A stretch of DNA of 64,000 bases from assembly GCA_013115135.1 (NCBI GenBank), contig JABANP010000174.1:1-64000 (forward strand), read 5' to 3'. Positions 4,075 through 59,945 of the stretch are shown in pieces (position 1 is the first letter of the stretch; every line of letters starts with the position of its first letter). This stretch comes from Perkinsus olseni (lineage: Eukaryota; Perkinsozoa; Perkinsida; Perkinsidae). Below the pieces are notes generated by a model that made no database searches, had not been told where the DNA came from, and saw only the letters and a program-made list of their open reading frames with translations. Both the position numbers and the translations under genes were made by a program.

Positions 4075-4830
4075 CATCCTCGACCCCCATATAGGCTACG
4101 GCAACGGCCCTATCCGCCAATTTGCTGATGTCTCCACAACAACAACAACAACAACTCGCTAATGTGATGATATCATCCTCGACCCCCATATAGGCTACGG
4201 CAACGGCCCTATCCGCCAATTTGCTGATGTCTCCACAACAACAACTCGCTAATGTGATGATATCATCCTCGACCTCCATATAGGCTACGGCAACGGCCCT
4301 ATCCGCCAATTTGCTGATGTCTCAACAACAACAACAACAACTCGCTAATGTGATGATATCATCCTCGACCCCCATATAGGCTACGGCAACCCTATCCGCC
4401 AATTTGCTGATGTCTCAACAACAACTCGCTAATGTGATGATATCATCCTCGACCCCCATATAGGCTACGGCAACGGCCCTATCCGCCAATTTGCTGATGT
4501 CTCAACAACAACAACAACTCGCTAATGTGATGATATCATCCTCGACCCCCATATAGGCTACGGCAACGGCCCTATCCGCCAATTTGCTGATGTCTCAACA
4601 ACAACTCGCTAATGTGATGATATCATCCTCGACCCCCATATAGGCTACGGCAACGGCCCTATCCGCCAATTTGCTGATGTCTCAACAACAACAACTCGCT
4701 AATGTGATGATATCATCCTCGACCCCCATATAGGCTACGGCAACGGCCCTATCCGCCAATTTGCTGATGTCTCAACAACAACTCGCTAATGTGATGATAT
4801 CATCCTCGACCCCCATATAGGCTACGGCCT
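4075..4830. repeat. 90-bp satellite, right block, with variable CAA runs
   Basis: This continues the satellite of 411-1006 after the LTR insertion, with about eight units. Unit length varies because the CAA microsatellite within each unit expands and contracts (two to six triplets) and one unit near 4390 lacks six bases. The array therefore predates the LTR insertion. It ends near 4830 in unrelated sequence. Confidence 0.93.
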
Positions 4831-13815: not shown

Positions 13816-16800
13816 ATGGTGGACTGCCAGAATAATGCGTTCTGGCGGGGCGTCGACTCTTTTGCTGAGGTCTCAAACGACTTAGTCATTCTAGCAGACC
13901 GACAAGGCAAGATCCTATATGGGAACAGCCAATCCGAGGCCTGGACGGGGTAATTCTAGCGGAGCGATGCGAAAATATCGAGGGGAGTATCTTTAGGTTC
14001 AAAGCAGAGGAGCTGATAGGTCGGGATATAAAGATGCTGATGCCGGACAGAGTGGCGGTCGGGCATGATATGTTGTTGCAACAATTCGTCAAGAAAGCAG
14101 ATGAGGCGATGGCGACGGATCCCACCAGACGCCCGAGTAGTCTAGGAGTTCGGAAAAGTGTGGTATGGTGAAAGTTCCCTTCAGAGATCAACGTGGATGA
14201 AAGCAGGAACGTTGAAGTTAAGCACAAAGACGGCCAGGTCACGCCGAGCTCGTTATTTGTGTCGATACTGTAAGGAGCGGTCGCGGTGCATAGGCGCATC
14301 CCTGAAACTGAGTGTCCTCATCGACGAAATAGCGTTCGTCAATCATGGAATTGCTGTCCATATCGACGCAATGGACTTGAGGTCCTCGTTTGCGGATTTG
14401 AACCCACTATTCCCGAGCCCGCCGGTAGACTGCCTTCCTTGTTCGCCAATTTGATGTCCTCATCTGGGACCCACCGCCAAAAATACGACGTCCCTTACTC
14501 GCGGAGGCCATGCTCTCACGCGCGGAATGAGCTTGCTAGTAGTGAAGAGCGCAGCAGTAGTTTTTGTTTCGTGCTGGGAGCACGACCTCTCCTGCTCCCG
14601 CAGTATAGCCGTATAGCCCCTGGCTCGGCGAGTCACAGACACAATCGCTTAGTGATATACATAGGATAATGAATAATGAATAAATATGTAATTCATAGAT
14701 ATGGAAATATAAGAATTATAAATATGAAAATGTAGAGTAGTGGGCATGGGGAGTAACAAATATAGAATATCTCCCTCACCATGCCCTATTATCACAGTTC
14801 GATTATGCGTAGTAGTGGAAGCAAGAGGCTGCTGAATATCCCCTTTTCTCACGATTCAGTTTCGACTCTGACCCGACTGACTACAAGCTCTGCGCTATAC
14901 TACGAGACTGTACTAAGATATGTGAATTGGAACACAAGAAGGACAGCTTCATGGCAACCGTCAATCACGAACTTAGTAGGGTCGCCCTCCCCTGCCGCAT
15001 TGCCAGTGCTGCTGCTGCAGGGACTCCTCTCAATGGCGTCATTGGCCTCTCTGAGTCCCTCAGGATGACGGAGCCCAATCCGGGCAGGAAAAAACACTTG
15101 GATATCATCAATAACTGCGCTGTATGAAATGGAGAATCTTAGCGGAGCGAAGTTTTTTTGGGCGGGGAGCAGGTCCGGTTATTGGCATTGGTAAACGAGA
15201 TCATGGACATCGCGGCGCTGAAGGCGAAGAAAATGCAGCTGAATTTCGGCATGGTTAATGTAGGAGTATATTCCGCCAATTTCGTGGCGCGCGAGAATTA
15301 TCGTAGGTTAACGAGATTTGCGAGCAAGTGTGCGGAGAGATGATGGAGGCAGTGGACAAGAGGGGCCGGAAGATCAAAAGGATAAGGTGGATTTGGGCTT
15401 CTTGCCGGACCCAGCATGTCCGGAGGTTGAGGGCGATAGAGAGAGGTAGGTCCGGATGCATCGATTACACCATAAAAAGCAGCGTGGCTGTACATCCGCT
15501 TGCGTGTATTGCGGTGAAGGGAGGTAGCATTAAAGAAAATTGTGAGACCTGATTGGGGTGACCACTTGAACATCCGGTCAAGGTGAATGCCCAACCATGT
15601 CACGCATTCTTGGCTTATAGTATGACCGCCAATGCGTGCTTTGACCCCCGGACCGCCATGAAGCTAGCTCGAGACGAAGCACATTAGCCCAGTTTGACTC
15701 CACGAGAGCTTGCACTTCACCGAGAGGCTCCTCGATTGGTAGCAGTCGTTTATGAGGGGTATGGAGTCCCTACCCCTCATAAACGACTAATGTGGTATAA
15801 ACGACATACTATGGACGGTGGTGGGGAGTCGAGCATGGTACTGTGTACCGCGTAGACAGTCGAGAGACGCGCGGGTGGTCATCTACATAGGGACGGCTCT
15901 GTTAGCGGGAAGGTCGGTGTCTTAGTGGACCGTATAGGGCAGTCTGAGGCATCGAGGACTAAGCGGGAATTTCGTGGCGAAGTGACGCTTTGCGGTGTTA
16001 TCAGACTCCACTATGTGTTGTCGGCCATGATCAATAATGCATGCAAGTTCACATCCAAGGGCTCTGTGAAAGTGGTGACCAAGGGCAAGGCCAGAGGGGT
16101 GAGTGTCAATAGATCCCGGGTTCGATTCCCACTGGTGGCATTCTAGGTGTTGGTTAAAATAGTGGACACCGGTATTGGCATCGCCGACCAGAATGTGAAG
16201 CGAATTTTCACCGAGTTCGAGCAGGAGGATGATGATCATGAGAACCGAAAGTAGGTGAACGTGTGCTCACCCCGACCAGCCGCCTCGCTAATGCATGAGC
16301 TGCGATTGCCCGTCGCTTTGCAGTGTATTGCCTGTAGTGCATAGTGGTGTCCTTCCTGCCTCAAAAGCGATCCCTTCCCTACTGGTGGGTCTAGGCCGTC
16401 GCTTGCCTGTGGTGGTGTCGCTAGCCTTCCCTAACCGTTACGGTGGAGTGCAGTTTACGATGCAATCAGTCGATGGCTCTTGATGGTGCTGGCTGTGATG
16501 ATCAGTGTAGTATTGTGGGGTGAACCTCAGATACGAAGGCCTGGGTCTGGGTCTATCGGTGTCGAATGAGGTTGTTAACCTCCACGGTGGGAGATTATGG
16601 TGTGAATCTGAGCCGGGACGGGGGAGTAAGGTTGGGGATCTTCGGAATGTCGGTGCCTCCGTATGTTGGAATCGCCTTCACATGAGGCTTCAGTCTAAGG
16701 GCTCTTCTCGATCCGAGACTCCAGAGTCAGGTTTCCTGGCTCAGGAACTCCAGCCCAGGCAGATTGCCGGGCAGCTCCGTCTCCATGATAACAATATCAG

Positions 16801-19800
16801 GCATTGGATGTGTGTTGAAGTAATCCAGAGCCGCGAAGCCGTCAGCGACGGTATTGGTCTTGTAAGCTCGGTCCACCAGCATCGGCCGCAGGATGGTGGC
16901 CGTATCGTCGCAGTCATCAATCACTAGCACTTCCTTTACTGCGAGCTCGTCAATAGTATTCTGCAGATCTTCTTGATCGTCCCCTTCCCCCGCCAACCCT
17001 TCGTCAGCCATAACCTACCAAGCACAGCAGCTCAGGTGAACAGTAACACAAGGGAATCGCACTACCATTTTCTGGGCTAACTCTTTCTTTTGGGCACGCT
17101 TCTTGCTCCTTGCCTCCACCACTTCACGAGCGTTGCACACTAGATCGATGAAGAAGGTAGCTGAAAGACAGGCCACCACTGCAACGACAACGATCCTCTA
17201 TAGTCGTCTAGCTCCTCAATGCGATAGAGGACAGCGCAGACCATTCAAACGGTTCGAATCAATCCAGTGCGAATTGTTTGCCAATCCCTAAGAATATGCG
17301 ACAGGTTTCCGACAATCAGTTTAGAAGGGAGAAGCCGCCGGAGGTGGGGATGTGTCTCTAAGGGGTTATCGTAAGCCGTTTACTTCACGAAGCATTCTTC
17401 GGCGAACCATTCGTAAATATGAACCTCTCTCGTTGCGGAGGTTCCTGCCGGAGCATCGCTTCATTCTCGCCATTATATGGCTCTCCGTTTTCTGCTTGTG
17501 AGACACTTCGTTGATTGTTCAATGATGAATGATCAGTTCAGTGGTTCGTCGCCTTGGATGAAGGGCCTGTGTGCTTCGGCCTTCGCCATGCTGTTCAGTC
17601 GGTCTGTTGGTAGCAGTGGTCATGAGGTTGTGGAAATCTAGCCTCAGGTGCCAATCTTAGTGGTAACCAAGTCAACCGAGGCGTCCAGTCACGTAGAGGC
17701 CATTCGACGAGGTGCTACAGCGGTGTACACCAAGCCCATCACGGAGGAGAATCTTCCTATCATCATTGACCATATCTTCGCTCTCATACGAAACCGTTAT
17801 CACGTTCAGCATGAAAACAAGGCGAAAGTGAATTACGAGGTGCCAGCGACTTGAAGACACTGACACGGATAGACATTCCATCAACGTTAGGTAATGGGCA
17901 GGGTTATGCCCAAGTTCATCATCAATCGCTTGAGAGGAGGTGCCACTATGATTGCCGACAAGTTGGAATGTGTCAGCTGCGTATCAGCAGTTGTGCATCA
18001 GTTCCCTCTCATCACGCAGGTGAGTTAGACTGTGCCCTTGCGGCTGATGCGCAAGGAGTATCTCGATTATCAGGCTGTGCCGGTCACACAGTTGGTGGTG
18101 TTGATGAATAAAATGACTAATAGTTTCGACCAGTTATGTAAAGACAATGGTATGTATCCCGTGCTGTCCAATGGAGAGCGTTTCCTTGCCGTGTGTGGCC
18201 ATGAGTCGACGAACGATGAACACACGGAGGTGGCTCTGAGGTTCGCCAGCAAGTTGTTGAAGGGTGAGTGCTCGTGCGCTCACTAGTCGGGTGGATTTGT
18301 CGTTATGGTAACGCTGGAATGGTCTAGTTGGTTATGACGACTGCCTAACACGCAGTAGGTCCCGAGTTCGATTCTCGGTTCCAGTATTTCTTTTTTCAGC
18401 GGAACAATTGAAGATCGGTAGTACAGGACAAACTCTAAAGCTGAAGATAGGCGTCAATACCGGCCTCGCTTATGCTGGTGTCATTGGCGGCCGAGCGAAG
18501 GCGCCGCAGTACGCCTTCTTCGGCCCGGGCGTGCAGATCGCCGAGTGGCTTGCTGAGACCGGCGTCCCCACCCATCCACATGTCGGCGATGAGACGTACA
18601 AGCTGATTATGCGAGAGCATGAGGGATCGGGCCTGTTCTCATTCCAAGAGAGAGGCGAGCTGAGGATATCAGACTCGGAGACTCTCCAGACGTGGCTGTT
18701 CAAGGAGAGGGCCGATCAGGACCTGTGTCACTTGAAAGCGCTGGGCGTGCTCACAGTCGGTGGTGCCATGGGTGACGATTCTGGAGACATGGTAGGTCCC
18801 GAGTTCAATTCCTGGAGGCAGCGCGTTGTTCTTTCAAGCTTGAACGCATACAAGAGCTGGAAGCAGAGCTCAGCATCTTCCACAGTACCTCTGTTACTGC
18901 TCCTAGTACATCACCAGCCGGCGGAGATGGCGGCGAGCGGAAGGTGTCGTCCCAGGCGGATCTCATCCAGGAGCAGCTCAGAAGGAAGGGGACCATCAAT
19001 GTCAACAGTGCCATCGGCTTGGTGGAACCGATGGAACGTAATTCACGTTGCCGGTCGAGCATCGCTGAGGGCCTGCGCCAGTGTATTGAGTTGTCTTCGT
19101 TTAGGTATCTGCGAGACTCTGATGGAAGTAGTAGCCTACGCAGAAGAAGAGGAGGCTCGGGCCGCTGAGCTCCTGGAGGTGCAGGCCAAGAGTGGTGCTC
19201 TCGGCAAATCAGCGGAGGTGCTCGAATCGGTGTGAGTTGACCTATCAGCACTCTAGTGGTTTAGGAAGGAGGGAAGGTCCCTGAGGAGGCGGCCAGGCAT
19301 CCGATACTCCTCAAGCTGAGTGACCTTGAGGGGCAGATCAAGGACCTGAACTCTCAGGCGGCCGAGGCCAACGTGGAGGCTAGAAGGGCCCATAGGGTCC
19401 TCAGAGATCTCGTCAAGGTAGGGAAGGATCCACAGCATGCCGAAGTGTTATGTGGTTGTTATTATTCAGATTGGCTTCCATGTTGGAGACCAGACCGATA
19501 TGGTGCCGTCTAGGGAGAAGGCGGAGGAGATGATCACGTCGATGGAGGAAGTGGTGAACTCGATAGTCATGGCCACGGGCCTGGCGCGAGAGATCGAGGC
19601 TGAGCAGAAGAGGATAGCCGAAGAGGAAGCCGCTGCTGCGGCGGCGGCCGCTGAGGAAGATGGCGGCAACCTTGAAGCTGACGGAGAGGGAGGGAAGGAA
19701 GTGCGGCATCAGACCTTTCATGTGAATATGCTTCTTGTCTTGGCCAGGACGATGATGATGAGGAGGAGGCGGCTGGTCACCAGGAGGGCGGACCCGAGGA

Positions 19801-21277
19801 AGCTATGCATCCGCTAATTAAGACCATGAAGACTCTTCAGAAAGAGATAGATTTCATACAGGTGGGAGGCCGCTGAGGGCAGGTTCGTGCTGGAAGTCTC
19901 CCATCATCACATTCAGGATTACGTGGCGGACACAGAGGACCTCCTGGAGGCGGTCACTGGCGGCACCGCGGCCAACAGCGGCGAACCTCAGGGCCTCTTC
20001 GGGCTACAAGTACAGCAGTTGCAGACGGCACTCTTGGCCAAGGAGGAGGTATCTAAGCTCATGGTGTCTTGCATTAGTGACGAGGTAGTATCTTTCTCAG
20101 GAGCTTGCTCGACTCGAGGAGCAGTTGAAGAGCCGCGGCGAGGAGGCCCAGATGATAGTAAAGTTGCAGAAGGACCTCACCGATACTGAGATCCGCCGAG
20201 GGTGTCTACAGGGAGAATTGGAAGTCACTAAAATGGAAATGACCAGACTGAAAACCAAAGGTACAGAGAAGGGGGTGGTTCCGAATCGCTGACCGTGGCA
20301 TGCCCGATCGCAGGTTTCGTACTCAAACAGAGGGAACGTAAGTCCACCACCACGACAGTATTGGCGAAGAGCAACGCGAAGGAGGGGGAGGCTGCGGACG
20401 TAGAGGGGCTGAAGCGGCTGCTGGCGGCTAAGCAGGCCGAGGCGGATATGTACAAGTCGGCGGTGGCTGACCGTCCTCTCAATAACGCTGCAGCGGTAGG
20501 GAGGGCTGGTGAGGTCTTCCTGTAGTGAAGAGGCAGGTGATGAAGCAACAGAATGACATCATTCATGAGCTCAACAACGAGATCGTCAAGTTGCAGAACG
20601 AGGCTGCTGCTCGAGGGACCGCCGCCGCCGGGGGAAAGCAGGTGATAGGAGCAGGGCCGCGGTGATGAGGGAACGATGACTGTGGTCAGGTCATGCAGCT
20701 TTGGTGGCCAGTGGGCGGGCTAATAAACAAGTGAAGGATCTGCAGGTAGCCATCCGGCAGGCTTCGCTGTCGTGAACTGTCGGGAAGCGTCGGTCTCTTC
20801 TCAGGAGGCCCTATTGAACGCACAGCAGGATGTGAAGCATCTCATGTTGGAGATGAGATATCACCACAATAAAACATCACAGTTGGCTAGTGATAACCAA
20901 ATGCTGGCGAAGTAAGGCGACCGGTACTCGAGGGGTGTGCATGCGTGCTGCTCAGAGACAATCAGACGATGCAGGCAAAGCTACTGGAGATGGCCAACAA
21001 GATGGAGGCCATGCAGCAGGTCTCCCACTCTAGTCACTGTTGCTTCGGGTGACTGATGACCTCCTCAGACACTCCGCCATAGAGAGATCGAGTTGGCGGA
21101 TCCGAGGCACATGATAAAGCAGGCCAGAGACCAGGTCCTGGTAAGGAAGACCGCTGCGCCACGAAATTCCTGTCATTTTGTGCCGGTCAGCTCCCCGGCG
21201 ATAAAGTGTCTGGACTGCTTAGCGCTGGGTTCGGTCGACAGGGGTACGGCATGCCGCCTTCGCTCGGCCTAGGGTGA
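13816..21277 (+). CDS. Hybrid sensor protein: PAS, histidine kinase, receiver, cyclase-like domain, coiled coil
   Basis: A gene of more than 20 exons separated mostly by 45-55 nt introns. In order: a PAS domain (13816-14269; [20 protein letters not shown], then [10 protein letters not shown] and [10 protein letters not shown]); the HisKA H-box VNHELRTPLNG across the intron at 14976-15020; HATPase with [16 protein letters not shown] and GLGLGLSVS (16005-16625); a receiver domain whose N-half is on the minus strand (see 16735-17160); the receiver C-half PILVVTKST...YTKPI at 17648-17839; a class III cyclase-like domain (17891-18780); then long coiled-coil segments to the stop at 21275-21277. The phosphoacceptor Asp of the receiver is Glu ([10 protein letters not shown]). 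In the cyclase the metal Asp residues appear as Ala (VSAVVHQF) and Glu (NGERFL), and DTVNTASR is PGVQIAEW, so it is probably inactive. A single missing A in the AAAA run at 15379-15382 shifts the frame. The first exon and the exons in 14270-14917 are uncertain. Confidence 0.75.
14270..14917 (+). other. Unresolved part of kinase gene with AT-rich island
   Basis: Between the PAS exon ending at 14269 and the HisKA exon starting at 14918 no exon was assigned with confidence. Bases 14650-14760 are very AT-rich (repeats of ATAATGAATA and ATATG type), unlike the rest of the gene, and probably intronic. A second sensor domain could be hidden here. Confidence 0.45.
15744..15788. repeat. Perfect 18-bp hairpin with 9-nt loop in a kinase intron
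   Basis: AGTCGTTTATGAGGGGTA (15744-15761) is followed by a 9-base loop and its exact reverse complement (15771-15788). It lies in the 559-nt intron 15446-16004. A second perfect hairpin with the same loop length is at 52771-52819. Confidence 0.9.
16099..16146 (+). other. 48-nt intron containing a tRNA T-arm-like sequence
   Basis: The intron GTGAGT...TTCTAG of the kinase gene joins exons coding KGKARG and VLVKIVDTG. Its body contains CCCGGGTTCGATTCCCACTG, matching the T-arm/B-box consensus GGTTCGANNCC, followed by GGTGGCA like a tRNA 3' end. Stem pairing is only three of five, so it is a relic or mimic, not a functional tRNA. Confidence 0.7.
16735..17160 (-). CDS. Inverted block of the hybrid kinase: end of HATPase, linker, N-half of receiver domain
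   Basis: Two minus-strand exons (17160-17066 and 17014 to about 16735, split by the intron 17015-17065) encode [20 protein letters not shown], then a linker, then [12 protein letters not shown]...[12 protein letters not shown]...GLEFL. The first is the expected last strand of the HATPase fold and joins in phase with the plus-strand exon ending CGG GGG A at 16625, giving GRGTTF. The second is the N-half of a receiver domain whose C-half is on the plus strand at 17648. So this block is inverted relative to the rest of the gene. Breakpoints lie within 16626-16735 and 17161-17647. Without re-inversion the kinase cannot be expressed whole. Confidence 0.8.
18313..18386 (+). tRNA. tRNA-Val (AAC) nested in an intron of the hybrid kinase
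   Basis: A full cloverleaf can be folded by hand: acceptor GCTGGAA with TTCCAGT, D-stem GTC/GAC, anticodon stem ACTGC/GCAGT around loop CTAACAC (anticodon AAC), T-stem CCGAG/CTCGG with loop TTCGATT, and discriminator A. A pol III terminator, TTTCTTTTTT, follows at once. The gene lies in the 136-nt intron 18264-18399, same strand as the host. The T-run also serves as the polypyrimidine tract of the host 3' splice site (TTTTTTCAG). Confidence 0.93.
18792..18838 (+). other. 47-nt intron starting with tRNA-Val 3'-half-like sequence
   Basis: The intron begins GTAGGTCCCGAGTTCAATTC. The same stretch with G for A (GTAGGTCCCGAGTTCGATTC) occurs inside the tRNA-Val gene 430 bases upstream, so the tRNA variable/T-arm region supplies the 5' splice site here. 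It ends TTTCAAG before the coiled-coil exon [11 protein letters not shown]. Four of five T-stem pairs can still form if wobble is allowed. Confidence 0.7.
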
Positions 21278-22179
21278 GTAGACATAAGATGGACCGCATC
21301 AGCAAGGCCCGCTGCAGGCATCCGATCTTGACCCGTGCCCTCGGCGATTCCCCCAATGGCGCTGCCTTTCCCCAGAGTTCTCTGATGGTCGAAGAGCTCA
21401 AAACCACTGGAATTCTTCCTAAACGACCGCACTCTATGAGTAAGCCAATTCGGATGTAGCGGTGCCCAGCGGCTCTACAGGCACAACTGAACGAGCGCGG
21501 CCTGTATACAACGGTTATCCGGAGACGGGAGACCTCAAAGGTGCAGTCGTTGGGGTGTGGTAAACGTGGTGATTGCAACTAGTCTCAGATCCCCATTGAT
21601 CACTAGTACTATTCAACGACATGTGCTGCTGTGCTCATGCCCCTTGTTGTTCATAACGAGTAGTTCGCGTTGTTAGTGGTATTGGGATATTGTTAACGGC
21701 CTCTTCAGAATGGGCGGTAGTGAGGACTGTGAACAAGTAGTAAACCCACGCCAACGATTGAGAAGACTCTTCAAGTCCCATCGTTAGAAAACCTCAAGTA
21801 TGGCCCTCCCTGTTATACGTGACGGAGCGATTCAGCATGAAAGATCAGCGGAGGATCGGTGCAGTGAGGTCTGTCAGCTAGTAGTAACCACTAGAACTCA
21901 GCACCATTGGAGACGGACGAAGAGACGTTGGTAATGTGATTGGGGAGCTAGAGAGCAAAGACCTTCCTGCTAACTTGAGAGTCGGGCCTCCATACATACT
22001 CATACTCCCCCGTACCTGTCCACAACACGGAGATGAGGACCCCTAGGCTACAACAGTACTCTATTGCCACGCCTAACCTCCCATGCTAAGCCTTCTGTTA
22101 TATAAACAACATCATTAACGCTCCTCAAAGGCATTCGAAGAAGACTTCCACAAACGCCGTTCAAACGACGCCACGATGG
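21278..22179. other. Intergenic between convergent genes
   Basis: About 900 bases between the stop of the hybrid kinase (plus) and the stop of RPF1 (minus). No gene, tRNA or repeat was recognised; both 3' untranslated regions must lie here. Confidence 0.6.
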
Positions 22180-24660
22180 TTATGTTCTCCCTATTTGCTC
22201 TGATCCGATCCAAGCCCGATTACGTTTGGCGAAGAGCCCAAGCTGCAGTGACCGCAGTTTGAGAGTAAACCGGGGACCTATCTCCTGCAGGGCACATCTG
22301 TCATCCTTCTCGGCATTCTCAAGATCTCGGAAGACGTACCTGGTAGGCGAGACCTTTCGGAGTTCAACAACCATTGAACGGAGATAATCGGAGTTGATCG
22401 GAGTTCTCACCCCAGCTCATGGGCTATTACAAAGTTAGCGAGAAGCACGACATGACCATACTGCAGAAACTACCCGGTGACGGAGATAACTATTACGACC
22501 GCCCGCAACGAAATTACCCCATACTACCGGTAATGGCGGAAAAATACAAAGTCTCGTTGATTATGGAACGCGACGACTCTCCGACCTCTGAAGTCCGGCT
22601 GAATTGCACCTGAGGACGCACGCTGAAGAATTGTTGAACGTATCTTAGGGATGCTATTGACCTCAATACCCGACGAACCAAGAAATAGCCGTTCGAATAA
22701 CCCGTTCGATGAGCCAGACTTGAATCACACAGAAGGTTGAAGAGAGAGACCACTAAGGTTAAGTCGAAAACCATAACAACGAGACAAGACGCGACGAACC
22801 ATCGACCGCTCTTCCAGGCACCGTCCTATTACTATAAGAATTCGATCCACTACCATACCCTCAGAGTAATAGGACGCCAGGAGACGGGCGAGAGCAGCGG
22901 GCCCGAATAGGTTCTTACCGAAGAGGCTCCCTATCTGCCTGCCTACCCTGTGGCCAAGCCTTGTACCAAAGCCATTCAACAGCAGCTCAGGACGATCGTC
23001 GGGGTTACCTAACATTCAATGCTGCCATCCTACCACCCTAACACCGCATCATGGGGGTAATACTGCTCACAAGAATGGAACAATACGGTAGAAAAGTAGT
23101 GGCAGTTGATTTTGCCGCAACCTTGACTGCCGTTACTTCCCCTCAATAACACCGAACCGGAGTTCCCATCGCATACTACGGCTGACGAGAGAGTTGGTTT
23201 CCCATACTACATGTGGCGCCGTGCTTCATGTCTGCTCCCAGTTCGAGACTAGTAAGCCTCCAGTAGGTGGTGGGGCCCTCTGGCAGACTGGTGATGTGAA
23301 GAGAGGAAGGCTCGTGCTTCCTGTCCTCTGATAATACCTATGAAAATGGTGACAATACCACCATAGTGAGGCGAATATCAACAAAATCCAGATTTAATTC
23401 CTACAGCGACATCACGCTTGGAACTCTCGAACGACGGATAGATGACGACTGCGAGACCGAGAAGGCAGGGATTGAGCCCTACCCAGGTCCGAGGTTAGTA
23501 CCCATCAGACCCGGCGTGGCATGCCCCCTCTCATGCCCCTGGTAGGGTCCCAAGGAAATGAAGAGACGGTAGTCGCCCCTCCCTACCACGACTGCTGTGA
23601 AGCCTCTGTTATTAGCAAAGTCGCATATCTTGGTGATGGGAAAATGCTTCTTCCGGAAGTACTGCATCCCCGGCACGACTTCGACCAACTCCTTAATCAA
23701 ACCATATGATCGCTCAGAAGGATACTGAAAGTATGTACAAGACCATCTTCCTCCCGAAAGACCCCAAGTTCGATCCCTGGGCAGTGCACCTAACCATATT
23801 ACCGCCATAGAGGTCGTGAACATGATCTTCGGCTCAACAGGTTCCCTCTCCTCCTCTTCCTCTTCACCCTCAGCCTGGCCCACTTCAACCGTAGTAGGTG
23901 CGGTACTCGGAGTTTCCTCCTCAGCTGGCGCTGGCGGGAGGACCTCGCTCGTGGGGGGCGGTGTCGGGAAGGTATGCCTGATGGACGACTACGTAGCTCC
24001 TACTACCGCGCTATACTGGCCGAGTGGCGCACCACAGAATGCCAGTACAGCCCTAGTAGCACTCCCAGCTCATCGAATCGCTCAGCCATCGGAGTATTCC
24101 TTTCAATTTTCAGTTTTCCTCGTTTGTCTCTCTGCGCTACTGCAAGGAAAATGAACTTCATGAGCCTCCCAAAAAATTCATCGTCATGTAGTTTGACGTC
24201 AATTACACAGGCCTACCAGTCACTATAATGGCCAGTTTCCTACACTAAGTGCTACTACACGCGAGAGGTGATCGCCTCTTCTACCTGAACTCATCCATTC
24301 TCTCATCCGCCTTGACCTCATCATCTCCCTCAGGGGGCAGCATAGTGACATCAGGCTCCCTCATCATCTCAATGGTAGTAGTAACAGGAACATCCACCTG
24401 CAGTAGTATTTCATGCGTCGCTCCGCCCCCCTGCCACGACTACCTCTTCTCCTCTAGCCCGAGCTTCCTGCCTCTGCTTTCTGGTCTCCCTTTTGACCTT
24501 CTTCTTTCTCCCGATATTGCCTTCCGACCTGCCATACCACATTTCCCACCAACTTTTGCGACCATGACACCCTTACGAGTTCCTGTCTTTTCCACTTGTT
24601 TGGTATATGTACATCTCCCTCCGGTATCTTCTCAGCATTACCCGTCTTATGACCTACAAC
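22180..24660 (-). CDS. RPF1: Ribosome production factor 1 (Brix/Imp4 domain), multi-exon
   Basis: RPF1 binds 5S/27S pre-rRNP and is needed for 60S subunit assembly in the nucleolus. Exons seen, from the 5' end: a basic N-terminal part with IPNKWKRQEL (about 24590-24660) and a Lys/Arg-rich stretch; an acidic stretch then EPVEPKIMFTTS (to 23803); SERSYGLIKELVEVVPGMQY and CDFANNRGFTAVV (from 23724); a short exon with GLMGTNLGPG (to 23479); PELLLNGFGTRLGHRVGRQ (23008-22919); VVAFHNQRDFVFFRHYR (22587-22528); and YVFRDLEN...LQEIGPRFTLKLRSLQLG (22339-22180). The last three carry the conserved RPF1 blocks in the right order. The start codon and first exon are not fixed. The C terminus seems shorter than in yeast and human; one more exon may be missed. 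Confidence 0.82.
23725..23802 (-). other. RPF1 intron with an antisense tRNA T-arm-like sequence
   Basis: The 78-nt intron (minus strand, GTAATA...TTTCAG) holds, on the plus strand, CCCCAAGTTCGATCCCTGGG at about 23762-23781. This has the B-box core GTTCGATCC and a T-stem with four of five pairs. Here the tRNA-like piece is antisense to the host gene, unlike in the kinase gene. Confidence 0.6.
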
Positions 24661-30800: not shown

Positions 30801-33800
30801 CCCGAAACTCTCGACTATCAGAACGATTCACGCTCTCTATAACCAAGAGGAGTCTCCATAAAGACGATCAGCAGGGGCGTCTAATGTATTACAGATTGTA
30901 AGGATCCCCCATAGCAATGAGGGCAATCTCAGGACCATCATAATTATCCAGGCGATGCACATAGTCCATCACACGAGACTTATCCTGGGCAGGATACAGC
31001 TCAACGGCAGGAAGCAGCAGCACTCTTCAGCCTACCGCCTTGATAGCTGTGAGGATGAGCAGGTTCTGCAGGGTCCTGTTATCGGAGAAGTCAGAGTTGT
31101 GCAGAACTATCTTCTCTAGTAGCTCAATGAGCTCGTTGGGGAGATCGGCATCGATGAAGGCCTTCACTGCTGCAGTGACCTGGTGGAAGAAGATGAACGA
31201 TAATGCGGGAATGAGATCCCAACACAATCCTAGTTAGAAGCCTGTAGCGAACGGGAGGGGATTGCCAAGAAGTCGGAAATGTGCTGAGGAGCCAGCAGTG
31301 GTCACCTCATCAGCATTCTTGCTCTCCGGCAAAGCAGTACTGACAACCTGGTCAATGACGTGCCTCCTATACTGATTATCATCAGCCAAAGCCTTAGCCC
31401 ACAGCTCCGGACTCTGTCGTTCGACTAGGTACCTGCAGCAGAAGCAGCAGCAAGCTAACGACGCACGAACACATCAGGCGAGCCTGCCGTACCTAGCCTG
31501 CAGACGGAAGAGGCCATTATTGTTGGTGACACGAAGGAGCTGATCGTCACAGGTACCCCACGCCCTGAAGAAGAAGAAGCCGAGTCCACCTCCTGCACCG
31601 CAGGACAAAAGCTGTGGTACCTCTTGTAAGCGATGTAGGCCAGATGAGGGTCACGATCCTCGCAGTACGCTCCCACCACCGCAGAGTCGTAATAGGAGTC
31701 GGTCTTGAGGAAGTTCTCGGGGTCCTTGTTGGAGTCAATGTAGATCTTGGCGAGGGCGTTATGAAGGGATGGCTCCTACAGACGAATCACTCATCCTCAA
31801 ATACATGAGTCTTTTGAGAGACGATGAGGGAAGCCTTTCGCTGGATATAGATAAGCCTGCTCAGCCCTGCTCTCACCTGATTGCCCTCGGCAAGACGTGC
31901 CTCCAACCACGGCTGCAAGAGTCTCAACCTATTACGCTTCTCAACAGCATCAACAAGAGGCTCCACTAGGGCATAAGGAGCGAACCTATCAATAATGAAT
32001 AGTATTACGCTCTTGCGAAGCCGGCGCTGCCGCTGCTTACGTTGCCCAGGATGTTATTCTTGATGTAATCTTCAGAGCAATCCCGATCAATCAAAGTCCC
32101 GACGACAGTAGGGCAATTCAAAGGGTTCACCTTAGTGACATAAACCTCAATATACCTGCACGCATGCACATGCCATCCCAGCGACCTCAAGATACTCCCC
32201 TACTTCATGAGATTGTTGGAGTAGAGGTAGTCAGTAAGCTCCTCGACATAGCCATGCATATCACAGACGTATATGAGAGGCCTTGGGTCCTGCAGCTTAG
32301 CCTCCTTCAGGAAGTCCTTCACCTTCACGGGGTCGTAATACTGGCTCTCTCTAACAACCCTCTCGACCTCCTGCATATGGCCCAGCTTGGCAGCTGCCTC
32401 GATGTATCTAAGGTCGAAGCAAAGATTCAACAGAGCCTCAAGATACTCGACTGTTACTTGAAGTGGACATCAGGATCTTGACTGGTCGACAGTATTCCTC
32501 CGAGGAAGAAGAACATGCCCTCCCAGCACTGATACTTCTCAAAGATCTCCACCAACTTATCCACCTCCAGCTGATCATGGTACCTACGATTACAACTGTC
32601 GCCGTCGACCATAACCGCGTTGGGATCCCTCAACGATGGCAATTCCACAATCACGCACCAGTAGCAATAGATGAGCACTAGATGTCCCTCACACAGCACA
32701 CTAGAGCAGATATTGACGAAGCGTGCTAAGGAGCGCGAACCGACGGATTCATTATTACTTGATGGCCACTTGCACCACAACCTGGATGTTCTGTTGCCTG
32801 TTGTAACGTAGCATATCTTCGATCAACTCCAAAGCTACACTCTTCGAATTCTCAGTACCGTTGCCAAGGACCTGTAGATAACACCAATCTTGCTCTCTTG
32901 CATTTTCCTCAACGCCTGGACGCCCTTACCTTCCCAATATAGTTGGTGAGGAAATCCGAGGACATATCATGGGAGTGCAGCATGCATCTCCTTATGTCGG
33001 AAATATCCGTGTAATGTTCCAACGCCCTCTGATACATACCAGCCTTTTCGCACATCATAGCAATATGCTGACGATCGTAGTGGCTCAGCATGTTCATTTG
33101 GAATATCGCTTCTGCCACCTAATGAGCAGGACCAAGAGCATCACCCACCTCACCTCGAAAGCCCGTCCTACCTGAGGAGCTTGCATGAGGTTCATCTCCA
33201 ACAACCTGGTCTGCAGCTGCCCTTGCTCAGGCTTGTCATCCTTGAGATAATCCAATAGCACCGAAGTCGTCTCCTGTAGCTTGCCCAGCGACATGAAGGA
33301 ATCCACCACCTACACCACATCTCTTCACCGGCTCCAGCGTGACCCCTAAAACCGACCTTATTAATATCAATCAATGGCGGGTTGTTATCCAGCAGGTCCT
33401 TCGCAAACTTGACCGCCCCCTCAGGGTTGGTAGCGACAATCGTCCTCAGCATCCCGCCATAATCGGCATTAGCGTAGTTCACCCGCTTCACGTACTGGAC
33501 AACCTTGTCGTACTCCCCAGCAGCAACAAAGCATGCAATGACCTTATCGTGGCACTGGGCACGGAGATAGACCGATAGAGCAAGTTTGCTATCCAAAGGC
33601 TTGACCATATCCCCCAGTTGCTCAGTGCAAGTGAGCTTGTCTTCACTTAGCCATTTTTCGATGAATTCCCGACGCCCCTGGGCTACTACGGGACCCACAA
33701 GCTCCATTGACTCGCTTTCATTCAACCTGAGAACAGTCAAGCCTCCCGATCAGTAAGGACTCCGTACGGACTCATCCATGTATCGCTGGCCACGCCGACC

Positions 33801-36120
33801 GATAGTTGTGAGCGAGAAGCCAAGGCTCGGAATTTCTCAGACCCCAAACCGATACCCGTGAGACCCAGGGTCGATCCCAACACACGACATTTTTATATTA
33901 CTTGTGTCCGCTCTCCAACAGAGCTGAGAAGTACTGGAGAAGAGGCGTGCTCTGGCCGGGCATCGAGGGGGCATTCTTGAACTGTTGAATGGTGGCCGGA
34001 GACCTCAACGAGCCAGAAGCATCTTGGGCGGCAATACGAGCAGCTTGCTTGTAGTCACCCGCTGCAAAATATCTGAGGTCGAAGGTGGTCAGATGCAAAG
34101 TGCGTCAACCAGAGGTTTCAGGTAGGCCTCTACCTGGTGAACTGCTGCTGGAACATTTCCTGAGCTCCCGGCAGGCCGTATCGCCTGGCAAGGTTGAAGG
34201 CGACATCCTGTCGATTGGAGAGCTGAAAAGAGTTGCGTGAATGGAGAATGGAATCTCTCAACGTCGGAGTTTGCATGCTCGCAACTTGTAAACGTTTCCC
34301 CTCGAACCAATTAAGAATGTACGCCGTAAACCTCAGGCAAGCACTATACGTAGCGAATCAAACTCGCCCCCCAAAATCCCGGGGAGCACCAAGAGCGTTC
34401 CGAGGCGCACACGGAACGGCAGTCTCACCTGGGGCATGCTGTCGGTGATATACTGCACTATACTGTCAACGTTTATACCAAAGTTGATCACATGACCACC
34501 TCGGTTCACAAAACGGACGCCACCAGTCTCTGAGAGAGAAGCGACAATGCACAGCGAAGGGAAATAAGTAAATATTTGTTATCACCATCGCTATAAGTGG
34601 CAATGAAGATGCTATCCTGAGACACCTTGTTTCTGAACAGCAACGCTCCGCTGCCGATGTCAAAAACGAAGGCGTAGCCTCCCTTGGTCAGCACATACAC
34701 CATACCGTGCCTGCGGATACAAGTGAGTCATGACTCCCAACGCCGGAGCACTTACTTAGGGCTGATATGAAGGGAAACGGCGAAGTCGCTGGGGTTCTCG
34801 GCGGGCATCGGCACGTCCACGCCAACTTTGTAGTGCGTTTTACGGGCCAGATCCATGATATGGAGCTTGGTAGCAGTGGAACCTAGCGTCACTTGATCTC
34901 GCTGAAAACACGACAGCAACAGTCAGGCAACAACTACCTGCTTTCCTCTCCATGAAGCTGAACAGGCCAATCGCCTCGCCGCTGTCGTCCACCGGAGCGT
35001 CAGCGAAGTTAGCAGCATGTCCCTCAAGCAGCTGCTGCTGTTTCCTACAGAACGGAAGGTACGAAATAGTCTATCAGAGGAGCCCTCACCTCTCGACGGA
35101 GAAGAGCTGGAGAGAACCTTCGATGGTCCTGCCTCCATCAGGAGTCGAGATACCGGAGAGCACACACCAAGTCTGGGAACTGTTAGTTGCGTACGCAATG
35201 ATCTGGACAAAAGGCATGGATCAACCTAAGATTCTCTTCTACCTACCTGAGTGGTATTCTCAGCTAACTTGCCAGCGCGATCAAAAACTTTCACAGGGGC
35301 CGAGTTGGCGCTGTCGAAGGTCCAATGATACACAGATCTAAAGGCATCATGATCTCGTAGAAAGCCACCTTCAACCTAAGATACCCACCTATCCCCAACC
35401 AGTGCCAGACATCTGGGTGCGATCCACCTCCAGAAAACTATGTGCTCATTAGAAAACTGATAGGACCCGAGCTTCTCCTTCGTGCCCAAGTTGAAAACTT
35501 GTAAGAAATGGCCCGTATTGCCTTCAACTCGCCCTAATCATCAGCATATCTTATTCGTGGTCACTACACCAGCATTACCCTTCAGTGCAATAATATTATC
35601 CACGGGATTCATCACAACTGCCTCGGCCTTCATAGGCCTTCTGGTCACCTAATAACATCAAGAGCTACAACCACCCACGGCAAACATGAACCCTCACTAC
35701 CTTATTATTGTCGTGCATATCCACCGTAATGACCTGTACCGATCCATCAGGAGCCTGATCTTTCACGGCAACGTATCTAGAATCAACAATATCGGACGCC
35801 CGCGAGTACCATTCGAAGATTCTGGCGACGCTGCTAGCTCTCATTCTCGCTCGGTAGAGAGAGTTCCAAAAGCATTGGAGAGGTCTCACGGAGTGATAGC
35901 CTAATAGCTCAGTAAACTCAGCCTACTTGTCCGACTCCATAGTGAGGACCCCGAAACGGAAATCCTTGGAGTTGATCCCCAGATCGGAGAGGTTCACAAC
36001 ACCTGTGATATTCACTGGAGGTGACGACTGCATGCCCAGAGAAAAGAAACAAGTAAAGCTGATAGAGAGATGTCAGTGGCTGCTCACCAATTGGGTTCGG
36101 TGGAGGAGTCGAGCGGACAT
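27895..36120 (-). CDS. CHC: Clathrin heavy chain, gene with about two dozen short introns
   Basis: This is the triskelion leg of clathrin coats in endocytosis and trans-Golgi transport. The first exon starts at 36120 ([11 protein letters not shown]) and is spliced to [11 protein letters not shown] and [20 protein letters not shown], the propeller N terminus. Further blocks follow in family order down to 27.9 kb: [12 protein letters not shown] (33.9 kb), [20 protein letters not shown] (33.6), [20 protein letters not shown] (33.2), LEHYTDI (33.0), SQDPDVHFK (32.5), [11 protein letters not shown] (32.1), [20 protein letters not shown] (31.1), [17 protein letters not shown] (30.5), [19 protein letters not shown] (29.9), and [15 protein letters not shown] (28.3). 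The tail is Gly/Pro-rich and ends [11 protein letters not shown] at 27895. Most introns are 45-80 nt. The frame needs one-base corrections near 28313 and 28030, probably homopolymer errors. The start lies just below a minisatellite. Confidence 0.93.
33727..33901 (-). other. Long clathrin intron with a degenerate B-box-like sequence
   Basis: At 175 nt (GTAATA...TTCTCAG) this is long for the gene. On the plus strand it contains ACCCAGGGTCGATCCCAAC, close to the B-box GGTTCGANNCC but one base short, followed by ACACGACATTTTTA. The stem is poor, so a tRNA origin is weaker here than in the other cases. Confidence 0.4.
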
Positions 36121-55812: not shown

Positions 55813-57228
55813 CTACTTAACGTCCTTGGCAACAGTAGAGACACACTTGCCAAGCATGACAACACCGTTGCCTTCCATGAGAGCCACACGAGAGAGACCC
55901 TCGCAGTTCTTGAAAGAATCGACAACAAGAGGCTGAATAGGCTCGAACACAACCTCAGCCATCTCGTTCGACTTGAGAGCATGCGGATCCTCCATCTTCT
56001 TTCCACCAGTCTCCTTGCCAACCTTCCACTTGATACCGGCAAGGCGGCAGGCTGAACGACCAGTACGAACAAAAGCGATCGGAGAATACCCAACCTTGAT
56101 CTCGCCGGGAACATCCAAAACCTGGACCTGGGCAGTGAATGACTGCACATGCTTGAGCGTACCATCCTTCTTGTAGATCATGACATCACCGGTACGGGGC
56201 ATGTTCTCCTTCACTAAGCCCTTGACGTTCAACCCGACATTATCACCGGGCAGAGCCTGCTCCTGACGGGTGTGGTGCATCTCGACAGTGAAGACCTTGC
56301 CAGTGCAGGCAGTAGAGGGTGTATGCGTAGGCATGAACACAACCTCCTCGTTAGGCTTGACGATACCCTGCTCGACACGGCCAGTGATCACATCACCGAC
56401 ACCCTTGATCTTGTAGATACCGGAGACAGGCATCCTCATAGGAGCATCGGTCACACGCTTAGGAACGGTGGCAAACTTCTCGAGACCATCCAAGAGAGTA
56501 TCAATATGGAAGGACTCCTTGGAGCCAGGGTCACGGACAACATCAACACCCTTCCACCACGACATCTTCTCAGACTTCTTAATCAAGTTGTCACCCATCC
56601 AGCCAGAAATAGGGATGATAGGAACACACTTCTCGACGAAGTCCTTCTTCCAGCCAACTCTTCCGAGGACATTCTTCATCTCATCACGAATCTCAGTATA
56701 ACGAGACTCCTTGTACCCGGCAACGTCACAGTCCATCTTGTTAACACCGACGATCAATTGCTTGACGCCCAACAAGTTGATAAGACGGGCGTGCTGACGA
56801 GTCTGGCCCTGGATCTCACCAGCCTTGTGGTTGCCCTTGGCGATGGCGGTACCGAAGTTACCATCGGCAGGAACCATCAAAAGAGCGACATCAGCCTGAG
56901 ATGCACCAGTGATCATGTTCTTGATGAAATCTCTATGACCAGGAGCATCAATAATAGTGTAGTGCCAAGAGTCTGTGAAGAACTCCTTAGTAGTGCAAGC
57001 GATGGTAACACCACGCTCACGCTCCTCCTTCTGTCGATCCATATAGAAGGCGAAGGCGAAGGAGGATTTACCAAGACGATCGGCCTCTTGTTTGAGCTTC
57101 TCGAGTTCACGCTCAGGAATACCTCCGAGCTCGAAAAGAAGACGACCGGTGGTAGTAGACTTGCCAGAGTCGACGTGGCCGCAGATCACGATCGACATGT
57201 GGACCTTGCCCTCCTTGCCAGCAGACAT
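55813..57228 (-). CDS. EFL: Elongation factor-like GTPase EFL, copy 1 (471 aa, one exon)
   Basis: EFL replaces eEF1A in several protist lines and delivers aminoacyl-tRNA to the ribosome. The start MSAGKEGKVHMSIVICGHVD and the full length agree with the family. GTPase motifs are GHVDSGKST (G1), DAPGHRDF (G3), NKMD (G4) and the EFL-type insert WMGDNLIKKSEKMSWWKG; the C-terminal barrel domains follow to KCVSTVAKDVK. The frame stays open upstream of the ATG, but the family start and an AG acceptor (TTTTTCCAG) 15 bases before it support this start; that acceptor could take a trans-spliced leader. It has no introns, unlike all neighbours. It differs from copy 2 by one residue (KHVQS versus KHVHS). 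Confidence 0.96.
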   Translation of the reverse strand: MSAGKEGKVHMSIVICGHVDSGKSTTTGRLLFELGGIPERELEKLKQEADRLGKSSFAFAFYMDRQKEERERGVTIACTTKEFFTDSWHYTIIDAPGHRDFIKNMITGASQADVALLMVPADGNFGTAIAKGNHKAGEIQGQTRQHARLINLLGVKQLIVGVNKMDCDVAGYKESRYTEIRDEMKNVLGRVGWKKDFVEKCVPIIPISGWMGDNLIKKSEKMSWWKGVDVVRDPGSKESFHIDTLLDGLEKFATVPKRVTDAPMRMPVSGIYKIKGVGDVITGRVEQGIVKPNEEVVFMPTHTPSTACTGKVFTVEMHHTRQEQALPGDNVGLNVKGLVKENMPRTGDVMIYKKDGTLKHVQSFTAQVQVLDVPGEIKVGYSPIAFVRTGRSACRLAGIKWKVGKETGGKKMEDPHALKSNEMAEVVFEPIQPLVVDSFKNCEGLSRVALMEGNGVVMLGKCVSTVAKDVK

Positions 57229-58222
57229 TGTCGTGGAAAACTGGAAAAATAGCCGCAAACACTGAGACAATTAACACATCTAGACACACTCCTCAACGTT
57301 CTAGGTAAACTCAATTCACAATCACGATCATAACGCGGTAGGCAAGAAAACAAATCAAACCAACACGAGAGCTAGAAACAAGTAACACCAACAAAAAAAG
57401 TAAGACTAGCCACACACTAGCTATGTCTACCCAGCACAAAGTCGGCTGAGCAGGAATGAGCGCCACGAACAGAACAATTTGAACGCTCATAATGAGGCAT
57501 CTATACCAACCAAGGGTCATTATTGGGCAAGACAGGGCGACATTCTAAACTAGCTTGAATCACTTATGCGATGACACATTGTGAAACACTCTCTGCTAGA
57601 GGGTCTCTAATAGCAGGAACCGCACGGTTTAAAGTGTCATCACAGAAGATGACAGAATTGATCGAAATAGCGTTGCACGCATGCGCACATCATTGATCGC
57701 TAGGAAGCAAGACTTCAAGTTGATGTACGAAGGGTGGAGGACGAAGAATACGGTTGGGATTCTACCTGACTCACTCTAACTCCGAGACGGAGGACCTGGC
57801 CCATCCTTGGTCATGAAGCGGGAGCCTCAGCTCGCGCGGGGATACCGGGTTCAAGACGCCCATATACTATACCTTAATGAAGATGACTATGTCGATTTCG
57901 ATCTGACAGCCAACTAACCCACCGGTGAACCGCGGCCCGGGTGTAAGGTAAAAAATCACACATCATCGTGCGAAGCTTCTTCCCAAAGTTCACTCAAACA
58001 CTCTTTTTGAAAGCACTCTAACAAATATTGAAGTTCTCAACTAATCCACTGGATCGGCCGCGTATCTGAGCTGATATGCGAAGTACCCAACAATTCCCCG
58101 ACTAATGAACACAACCAATTCTGAATCACATTAGATCTCAACTGAGCCTACTCTCGTTTAGATACACAAAGAACCCTACCAGGGATCAATTGTCTAACAA
58201 TCATAATATTGAAAAATGATAA
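57229..58222. other. Spacer between EFL copies
   Basis: About 1 kb without a gene. It contains GCACGCATGCGCA at about 57676, the half-site of the ATPase upstream palindrome. The 3' region of EFL-2 and the promoter of EFL-1 lie here. It is not duplicated elsewhere in the window as far as I can see. Confidence 0.55.
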
Positions 58223-59638: not shown

Positions 59639-59945
59639 TCTTCCAAAAACGCAGGGAACTCGAGTTAACTGAGAATAACACCAAATTACGCATGCACACG
59701 CAAACACTCCCTGTAAGCAGTTTGCAACTTCCAGGCAGAAGCTAGGAAGCCACTAGCGGTCGAAAAGTTGCGCAACTTTGACGAGCCGTTACGTCTCAAA
59801 TTTTGGGCGAGCGAGATCATCAGTGCGCATCTTTAGGTTTCTTGCATTTCGCAAGTTCAACCGATGGGTCCGCTGCTCAAGGTTGGGGTGAGTGCCTTTG
59901 AGCAGAGATATAACTTATGTTAGGTACATTTTTCGGATTTATATA

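What the first reader, a model, noticed from the sequence alone, without database searches (positions are those of the whole stretch)
16099..23802. Introns with tRNA-like cores: a possible tRNA-derived route of intron gain
In the kinase gene, intron 16099-16146 carries GGGTTCGATTCCC, intron 18792-18838 begins with a 19-of-20 match to part of the nearby tRNA-Val gene, and intron 18264-18399 holds that whole tRNA. The RPF1 intron 23725-23802 carries an antisense T-arm, and a clathrin intron (33727-33901) a weaker one. A further B-box-like GGTTCGAATC is at about 17250, in what would be a kinase intron. In 18792-18838 the tRNA sequence itself supplies the 5' splice site.
Basis: partly seen in the sequence, partly recalled or inferred. 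Interest (0 to 1): 0.85.

Follow-up and report, generated by a model that had tools for sequence, protein, structure and literature searches.

The report
tRNA-like modules inside Perkinsus introns
In the shellfish parasite Perkinsus olseni, a short tRNA-like DNA module scattered over the genome forms the body of many very short introns, which may show how new introns spread, although the act of insertion itself was not caught.

Summary
The genome (inferred: Perkinsus olseni) has 988 exact GGTTCGAATCC against 26 in the reversed control. Of 80 such sites read, 18 are tRNA genes; 62 are a dispersed ~35-nt module resembling tRNA positions 44-73 plus a T-run. A weight matrix built without the window finds the four partial window cases. 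I estimate roughly 1,000-2,500 copies.

A share of them, perhaps a third, lies in short introns (21 of 29 examined are 47-58 nt), in both orientations, sometimes several per gene. Removing the intron gives uninterrupted matches to Pfam or PDB proteins. The five named introns are supported by homology or frame. The 17250 motif is not.

Direct derivation from tRNA genes is not supported: outer T-stem pairs form at shuffle level, the 5' half is missing, and modules are no nearer to tRNA genes in hand than column-shuffled controls. The same module sits at the inner end of a transposon's terminal repeats.

Best reading: an introner-like family with a Pol III B-box core. Insertion creating an intron is inferred only: no empty allele was found, no clear target-site duplication was seen, and one module intron sits at an intron position shared with a paralog.

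The parts
16099..16146 (+). 48-nt spliceosomal intron of a histidine kinase gene, made largely of the module (16110-16145, sense)
   Evidence: GT..AG; phase 0; HATPase_c spans the junction E 5e-11; matrix score 33.4
18264..18399 (+). 136-nt intron in the cyclase domain that holds a complete tRNA gene
   Evidence: Guanylate_cyc 9-155 spans the junction near residue 67
18313..18386 (+). tRNA-Val(AAC) gene nested in that intron
   Evidence: ARAGORN, Rfam RF00005 64.5 bits; 52 other matches of 92-100% identity
18792..18838 (+). 47-nt intron whose 5' splice site GTAGGTC is the first part of the module (18793-18828, sense)
   Evidence: matrix score 21.4; open frames both sides, LERIQELEAEL after splicing; no domain across, and the unspliced frame is open too
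23725..23802 (-). 78-nt intron of an RPF1-like gene; module on the + strand at 23758-23793 (antisense to the gene)
   Evidence: matrix score 15.6; weak match to PDB RPF1, E 0.012, one-residue gap by the junction
33727..33901 (-). 175-nt intron of clathrin heavy chain; module on the + strand at 33859-33894 (antisense)
   Evidence: matrix score 16.4; boundaries; PDB clathrin match E 1e-34 across it
15122..15172 (+). 51-nt intron of the same histidine kinase with another dispersed repeat (TTAGCGGAGCGAAG at 15139-15152) and no tRNA-like module; it sits at the same protein position as a module intron of the related kinase on contig C8
   Evidence: read by eye; the motif has 278 copies against 4 in the reversed control

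Best explanation
P. olseni carries an introner-like family whose core is a ~35-nt extended B box: tRNA positions 44-73 followed by a Pol III-terminator-like T-run. Shown: the module is dispersed over the genome in far more copies than chance gives, sub-groups are near-identical in unrelated genes, and many copies are the body of near-minimal, precisely removable GT-AG introns in both orientations. Seen in single cases: in sense, the tRNA variable-loop part (GTAGGTC) is the 5' splice site and the T-run lies where a polypyrimidine tract would; in antisense, GTAAG or GTAGG falls on the complement of the acceptor end and T-run. Inferred: short elements with this core insert into exons (or overwrite short introns) and are spliced at once because the core brings or lies next to usable splice signals. 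The vehicle is unknown. A DNA transposon of the same genome carries the same module at the inner end of its terminal repeats and is one candidate.
For: 988 exact B boxes against 26 reversed; AGGTCNCNGGTTCRANNCC 800 against 1. Conserved block only from -9 to +26 around the B box in 40 sites, much the same consensus in the next 22. Junction-spanning Pfam hits in 9 of 10 scanned cases (10 picked by eye from 43 candidate translations; in the miss, L081, the hit starts 2 residues after the junction). Further: window 16099; a C8 kinase/receiver gene with four module introns; a phosphonopyruvate decarboxylase-like gene with an antisense and a sense module intron on either side of one exon. Introns in two unrelated genes (histidine kinase, SNF2 helicase) share 34 nt at 94% including the 5' splice site. 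17 of 20 module introns listed are 47-57 nt, and 21 of 29 are 47-58 nt when clathrin, the C8 72-nt intron and L151-L154 (without the second of L151) are added: too short to be a 35-nt insertion into an ordinary ~50-nt intron. Splice pairs scoring 7 or more frame the module in sense in 21 of 62 sites, against 273 of 3100 for the same cores with random genomic flanks, and in antisense in 8 of 62 against 189 of 3100; either orientation at 8 or more, 22 of 62 against 7.3% (random positions).
Against: No empty allele: of 7 sites searched 3 have a second copy, and the module is in both copies in 3 of 3. One module intron (C8 kinase NSCG^VRLV) shares its position with a window intron of other content (NNCA^VRLL), which suggests replacement in an old intron or parallel insertion. 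8 of 29 module introns are 72 nt or longer, seven of them 72-94 nt, about what insertion into an ordinary intron would give. No clear target-site duplication (total match of 4 or more: 2 of 20 against 17 of 120 general introns). Intron tails differ between copies. A fifth matrix hit in the C8 gene falls in a called exon. My blind gene finder did not show enrichment in introns: 5 of 63 against 40 of 600 random, and splicing out the module did not raise coding score more than at random sites (gain >0: 17 of 62 against 27 of 160; >2: 2 of 62 against 7 of 160).
Confidence: 0.5

Rival explanations
1. The module is a functional extended B box (TFIIIC site without a tRNA gene, like ETC or COC sites) that was copied about the genome and is kept wherever non-coding DNA is available, short introns included; introns are older than the modules.
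For: B box without an A box in most sites (A-box score 8 or more in 4 of 61 against 3% of random and 18 of 18 tRNA genes). Modules changed less than their surroundings in three duplicate pairs: 4 of 217 against 151 of 3141 positions over seven matrix hits, p 0.04. Shared intron position with different content in a related kinase. GGTTCGAATCCCAGG identical in 7 of 7 transposon ends that are otherwise 72-77% alike to C199.
Against: Does not explain why most module introns are no longer than ordinary introns, nor the conserved 44-48 part and T-run, which a bare B box does not need.
Confidence: 0.22
2. Intronic modules are pieces of the ends of a DNA transposon (TA target site, 193-bp terminal repeats) whose inner repeat end is the same module.
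For: In C199 the repeats' inner edges coincide with GTAGGTCGCGGGTTCGAATCCC; divergent ends elsewhere keep this part; L052 and L053 match it over 37 and 24 nt.
Against: No intronic module held shows the outer 130 bp or the terminus; most modules have other variants (AGGTCCC, AGGTCGTG); a lone inner fragment has no known way to move.
Confidence: 0.13
3. Modules are 3' parts of tRNA genes or pre-tRNAs (ending at the Pol III terminator) captured directly as introns or left by erosion of nested tRNA genes: the first reader's reading.
For: Anatomy follows tRNA numbering from 44 to 73 plus T-run (numbering recalled); a whole tRNA-Val lies in a neighbouring intron; tRNA genes are many and dispersed here (one search is a capped list of 63).
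Against: Outer T-stem pairs at shuffle level; no 5' acceptor strand; no closeness to tRNA 3' ends in hand.
Confidence: 0.12
4. Chance B-box-like words in introns.
For: The word at about 17250 is of this kind.
Against: Reversed-pattern controls 26 against 988 and 1 against 800.
Confidence: 0.01

Closest known systems
Introners / introner-like elements (Gozashti et al. 2022, PMC9860276, passages read)
   Same: Many similar short introns in unrelated genes; removal leaves the protein intact; copies also outside introns; lengths inside the published 30-654 nt range of family medians
   Different: Core is a tRNA-like extended B box; only the core is shared, tails differ; no clear target-site duplication or terminal repeats; no empty site shown. 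In that paper's main text tRNA, SINE and Perkinsus occur 0 times; supplements not read
Amoebophrya introners (PMC7789003, passages read)
   Same: Early-diverging dinoflagellate; repeated introns said to spread like transposable elements
   Different: Those carry direct and inverted repeats and non-canonical splice sites; the ones described here are GT-AG (the only kind my scripts looked for) and B-box-like
tRNA-derived SINEs (recalled)
   Same: B box, Pol III-like T-run, dispersed copies; a separate ~160-bp repeat with a B box exists here (L059, 20 other matches)
   Different: No A box above background, and no constant body or tail, in the modules
Extra TFIIIC (ETC/COC) sites (recalled; search listing only)
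   Same: B box without a tRNA gene
   Different: Occupancy untested; T-run and variable-loop part are extra
Dada DNA transposons in P. marinus tRNA genes (Kojima and Jurka 2013, PMC3706591, passages read)
   Same: Perkinsus transposons tied to tRNA sequence; more than 500 copies of five tRNA types reported there
   Different: Dada inserts into tRNA genes; here the module stands alone or is the inner end of terminal repeats, and upstream sequence is not shared

Membership tests
Introner family | Similar introns in several unrelated genes | tested here: met
   Shared ~35-nt core in introns of kinase, SNF2, ankyrin, AAA, FAT, eIF3c, TPP-enzyme and clathrin genes; best pair 34 nt at 94%; similarity covers the core, not the tails
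Introner family | Removal restores an uninterrupted protein | tested here: met
   9 of 10 Pfam cases; PDB alignment without gap at either junction of L154; RPF1 shows a one-residue gap by the junction
Introner family | Intron absent at that site in an ortholog or paralog (gain) | tested here: inconclusive
   Two module introns unshared between two related kinases, one at a shared position; 3 of 3 duplicate pairs keep the module; no other strain's DNA available
Introner family | TSD and/or TIR (present in part of known families) | tested here: not met
   Match of 4 or more at the ends in 2 of 20 against 17 of 120 general introns; prefix match of 3 or more in 5 of 20 against 9 of 120; TIRs of the introns were not tested separately
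tRNA gene or 3' half | Paired T-stem | tested here: not met
   3 of 3 outer pairs in 5 of 61 modules, 18 of 18 tRNA genes
tRNA gene or 3' half | 5' acceptor strand and A box upstream | tested here: not met
   Complement of 6 or more in 5% against 6% permuted; A-box score 8 or more in 4 of 61 against 3% random
tRNA-derived SINE | A box, B box, body and tail of constant sequence | tested here: not met
   Conservation stops at -9 and +26 in the first 40 sites
ETC site | TFIIIC bound without Pol III | not testable with these tools
   No binding data
Ends of the C199-type transposon | Outer repeat and TA-flanked terminus | tested here: not met
   Held intronic modules match only positions 1 to about 46 of the 193-bp repeat

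The most novel reading that the evidence does not exclude
A Pol III-type sequence module (B box plus terminator) has become a ready-made intron: the T-run doubles as polypyrimidine tract, the tRNA variable-loop sequence as 5' splice site, and the antisense strand also offers a usable 5' splice site, so insertion in either orientation yields a minimal intron. That would be a route of intron gain that starts from Pol III gene parts.
Probability: 0.3. Interest if true: 0.85.

Novelty: new variant of a known kind. Interest (0 to 1): 0.62.

Why it matters
How new spliceosomal introns arise is open; introners are a main documented route. A family with a tRNA-like core in a relative of dinoflagellates, still recognisable in a thousand or more places and next to a transposon with the same module, would let one ask directly what vehicle moves it and whether Pol III signals can turn into splice signals.

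Tried and rejected
Chance: rejected by reversed-pattern controls. Fresh copies of individual tRNA genes, and multi-source tRNA fragments with drift: rejected, with the caveat that seven amino acids were not in the tRNA set (tRNA-Phe was seen later, and not added to the distance test). A 17-nt scan for fully paired T-arms found only 4 in 124 kb, 2 of them tRNA genes, 0 in the reversed control, 0-2 with seven permuted loops. A home-made gene finder gave no blind enrichment in introns: its coding model is weak on short stretches, and 40 of the stretches were 611 bases against 811 for the random control. Duplicate pairs as empty sites: 3 of 3 kept the module. TTAGCGGAGCGAAG and AATTTCGTGGCG as parts of the same family: they look like separate repeats. 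L078 as a longer repeat: single copy. The five remaining new places (L130, L132, L138, L139, L140) were not resolved.
Full report
Organism. The window is contig C84 of a 61.5-Mb, 968-contig genome. A protein named as Perkinsus olseni (FOZ60_016156) lies on a contig of 158,590 bases, the length of C823, and FOZ60_006864 on one of 68,760, the length of C199. I take the genome as P. olseni; this is inference from contig lengths and names.

Is the signal real? The B-box word GGTTCGAATCC occurs 988 times against 26 for the reversed pattern. The first 100 places, in contig order, are listed; I read 80 (8 as 3-kb loci, 72 as 611- or 811-base stretches; the 20 left out lie in clusters, some probably tRNA arrays). 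18 are tRNA genes (17 by ARAGORN, L071 by eye). The other 62 share a block from -9 to +26 and nothing outside it (first 40, the next 22 give much the same consensus). In tRNA numbering it is 44-48 AGGTC, 49-65 the T-arm region, 66-72 ending in GGC, 73 A, then TTTTT. A weight matrix from these 62, none from the window, was run over 124 kb (window plus six 10-kb stretches, picked on contigs known but not aimed at sites): at 14 or more, 8 hits against 1 in reversed sequence. Below 12 hits and control are alike. The word near 17250 is not a hit.

How many? 988 x 62/80 gives about 770 exact non-tRNA copies, or about 610 if all 20 unread places are tRNA genes. AGGTCNCNGGTTCRANNCC has 800 places against 1; 20 of 62 exact-B-box modules and none of the 18 tRNA genes fit its first part, which points to about 2,500. 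The six other stretches hold one non-tRNA hit in 60 kb, about 1,000. So 1,000-2,500, roughly.

Are they introns? From the 62 sites a script proposed 43 translations of 50 or more residues with a GT-AG intron around the module. I picked 10 that looked recognisable and scanned them: all 10 have a Pfam match at E 0.001 or better, and in 9 the match runs across the junction (L004 Response_reg, just under its curated cut-off; L052 HATPase_c; L053 SNF2; L066 ankyrin; L094 AAA; L096 FAT; and, antisense to the gene, L074 eIF-3c, L098 HEAT, L115 KH); in L081 it begins two residues after it. The other 33 were not scanned. Window cases: HATPase_c across 16099-16146 and Guanylate_cyc across 18264-18399, clathrin continuous with PDB chains, RPF1 weak, with a one-residue gap by the junction; 18792-18838 has frame evidence only.

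Several per gene. The kinase on C8 has four module introns of 48 (antisense), 53, 49 and 72 nt; HisKA, HATPase_c and Response_reg span the junctions. A fifth matrix hit there falls in a called exon. From the 100 places I took the four closest pairs (of seven under 400 bases) and read them. On the better-scoring strand the blind gene finder put 3 of the 8 modules in introns of 51-94 nt (L151 first, L152 both; the L152 product matches eIF-3c_N across both junctions, below the curated cut-off). The second of L151 got an implausible 34-nt call. L153 has both modules in introns of 74 and 80 nt only on the lower-scoring strand (2.5 against 4.7). In L154 the finder missed both, but removing a 51-nt antisense and a 55-nt sense intron gives a product that aligns without a gap at either junction to a phosphonopyruvate decarboxylase subunit.

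Enrichment. With a strict threshold the gene finder placed 5 of 63 sites (L071 included) in introns and 1 in an exon, against 40 introns and 143 exons of 600 random positions: fewer in exons, not more in introns, on stretches partly shorter than the control's. Splicing out the module raised the coding score no more than at random places. What stands out is splice-site pairs tightly framing the module. Against random positions: sense 21 of 62 against 5.8%, antisense 8 of 62 against 6.3% at score 7 or more. Since the module itself brings a T-run, I repeated it with the same cores between random genomic flanks: sense 21 of 62 against 8.8%, antisense 8 of 62 against 6.1%; either orientation at 8 or more, 22 of 62 against 7.3%. 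Exchanging flanks among the sites keeps the sense rate high (27.5%), so the flanks carry the splice sites. A share of about a third in short introns is my inference from this excess.

Length. 17 of 20 module introns listed are 47-57 nt; general gene-finder introns taken from the 40-75 range have quartiles 47, 52, 60. Adding clathrin (175), the C8 72-nt intron, L154 (51, 55), L152 (51, 58), L153 (74, 80) and L151 first (94) gives 21 of 29 at 47-58. A 35-nt core inside a 48-nt intron leaves no room for an older intron, so either the intron came with the module or the older content was lost. The seven of 72-94 nt would also fit insertion into an ordinary intron.

Copying. Modules are nearer to each other than column-shuffled ones (nearest neighbour at 4 or fewer differences in 35% against 9%). 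The introns of L052 (histidine kinase) and L053 (SNF2) share 34 nt at 94%, starting with the 5' splice site, but their tails differ. Between the two copies of the C8 kinase (93.7% over 2.2 kb) the module at the HATPase site is unchanged while the T-rich tail differs by a 9-base gap. Over three duplicate pairs, seven matrix hits changed at 4 of 217 positions against 151 of 3141 outside (p 0.04), which hints at constraint.

Not a folded tRNA half. Outer T-stem pairs form at shuffle level (0.46, 0.41, 0.49 against 0.50, 0.46, 0.52), and all three form in 5 of 61 modules against 18 of 18 tRNA genes. There is no 5' acceptor strand upstream, rarely an A box, and no closeness to 26 tRNA 3' ends in hand (Ala, Asn, Asp, Lys, Phe, Trp, Tyr not in the set). 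So the likeness is at DNA level: an extended B box with a terminator-like run. The complete tRNA-Val in 18264-18399 has 52 other matches of 92-100% identity in the genome.

A transposon with the same module. Of 15 places of GTAGGTCNNGGGTTCGANTCCC (0 in control) I read the 11 new ones: six lie in longer repeats (L131, L133-L137), five were not resolved. On C199 two 193-bp inverted repeats, 99.5% alike, with TACAGTACCGG ends read as a TA target site, enclose an ORF whose named relatives are Perkinsus proteins without a Pfam domain save one, besides unnamed database entries. The inner edge of each repeat is exactly the module. Six further ends read, five from places listed once and one from C54, are 72-77% alike to it and keep GGTTCGAATCCCAGG without change (7 of 7 with C199), the longest invariant run of the alignment. 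That the ORF is a DDE transposase is my recollection of the family's look, not a tool result.

Gain or replacement? In the two related kinases (C8 and window), the FTPSG^ module intron is absent from the window gene and the window's KARG^ module intron is absent from the C8 gene. But the C8 NSCG^ module intron sits where the window has a 51-nt intron with another repeat, TTAGCGGAGCGAAG (window borders by eye). Shared position with unlike content speaks for replacement in an old intron or for parallel insertion. Three of three duplicate pairs keep the module.

Literature. Searches of the held library listed no paper whose title or abstract start is about tRNA-like introns or Perkinsus introners; I opened passages of four (PMC7789003, PMC3706591, PMC9860276, PMC11453091). 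Supplements and subscription papers were not seen. In PMC9860276 tRNA, SINE and Perkinsus have 0 occurrences in the main text.

Noticed in passing
window 15139-15152; genome-wide: TTAGCGGAGCGAAG, in two of four held copies followed by a T-run, has 278 exact copies against 4 in the reversed control and lies in at least one short intron: possibly a second intron-associated repeat family.
   Followed up: partly
held loci, 265 kb: AATTTCGTGGCG occurs in 8 separate places and ATCTTAGGTTGA in 7: further short dispersed motifs.
   Followed up: no
L141:2770-5111 (C199:15770-18111): DNA transposon-like element with 193-bp inverted repeats and TA-flanked ends; its ORF has relatives in P. marinus and P. 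chesapeaki.
   Followed up: partly
L059 (C17:39833-40443): About 160-bp dispersed repeat with a B box, 20 other matches at 68-83% identity; possibly a SINE.
   Followed up: partly
C778, C823, C179 (L022-L027, L037, L038): tRNA genes in tandem arrays with a spacing of about 170-186 bases; 31 of 35 places of a tRNA-Phe-type pattern carry one and the same word.
   Followed up: no
C8 and C134; C7 and C340: Contigs about 93-97% alike over the compared stretches, likely haplotigs or segmental duplications.
   Followed up: partly
L142:704-752 and 4261-4309: Two near-perfect 49-bp palindromes 3.5 kb apart.
   Followed up: no
window 55813-57270 and 58223-59752: Tandem pair of near-identical elongation-factor ORFs on the minus strand.
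   Followed up: no
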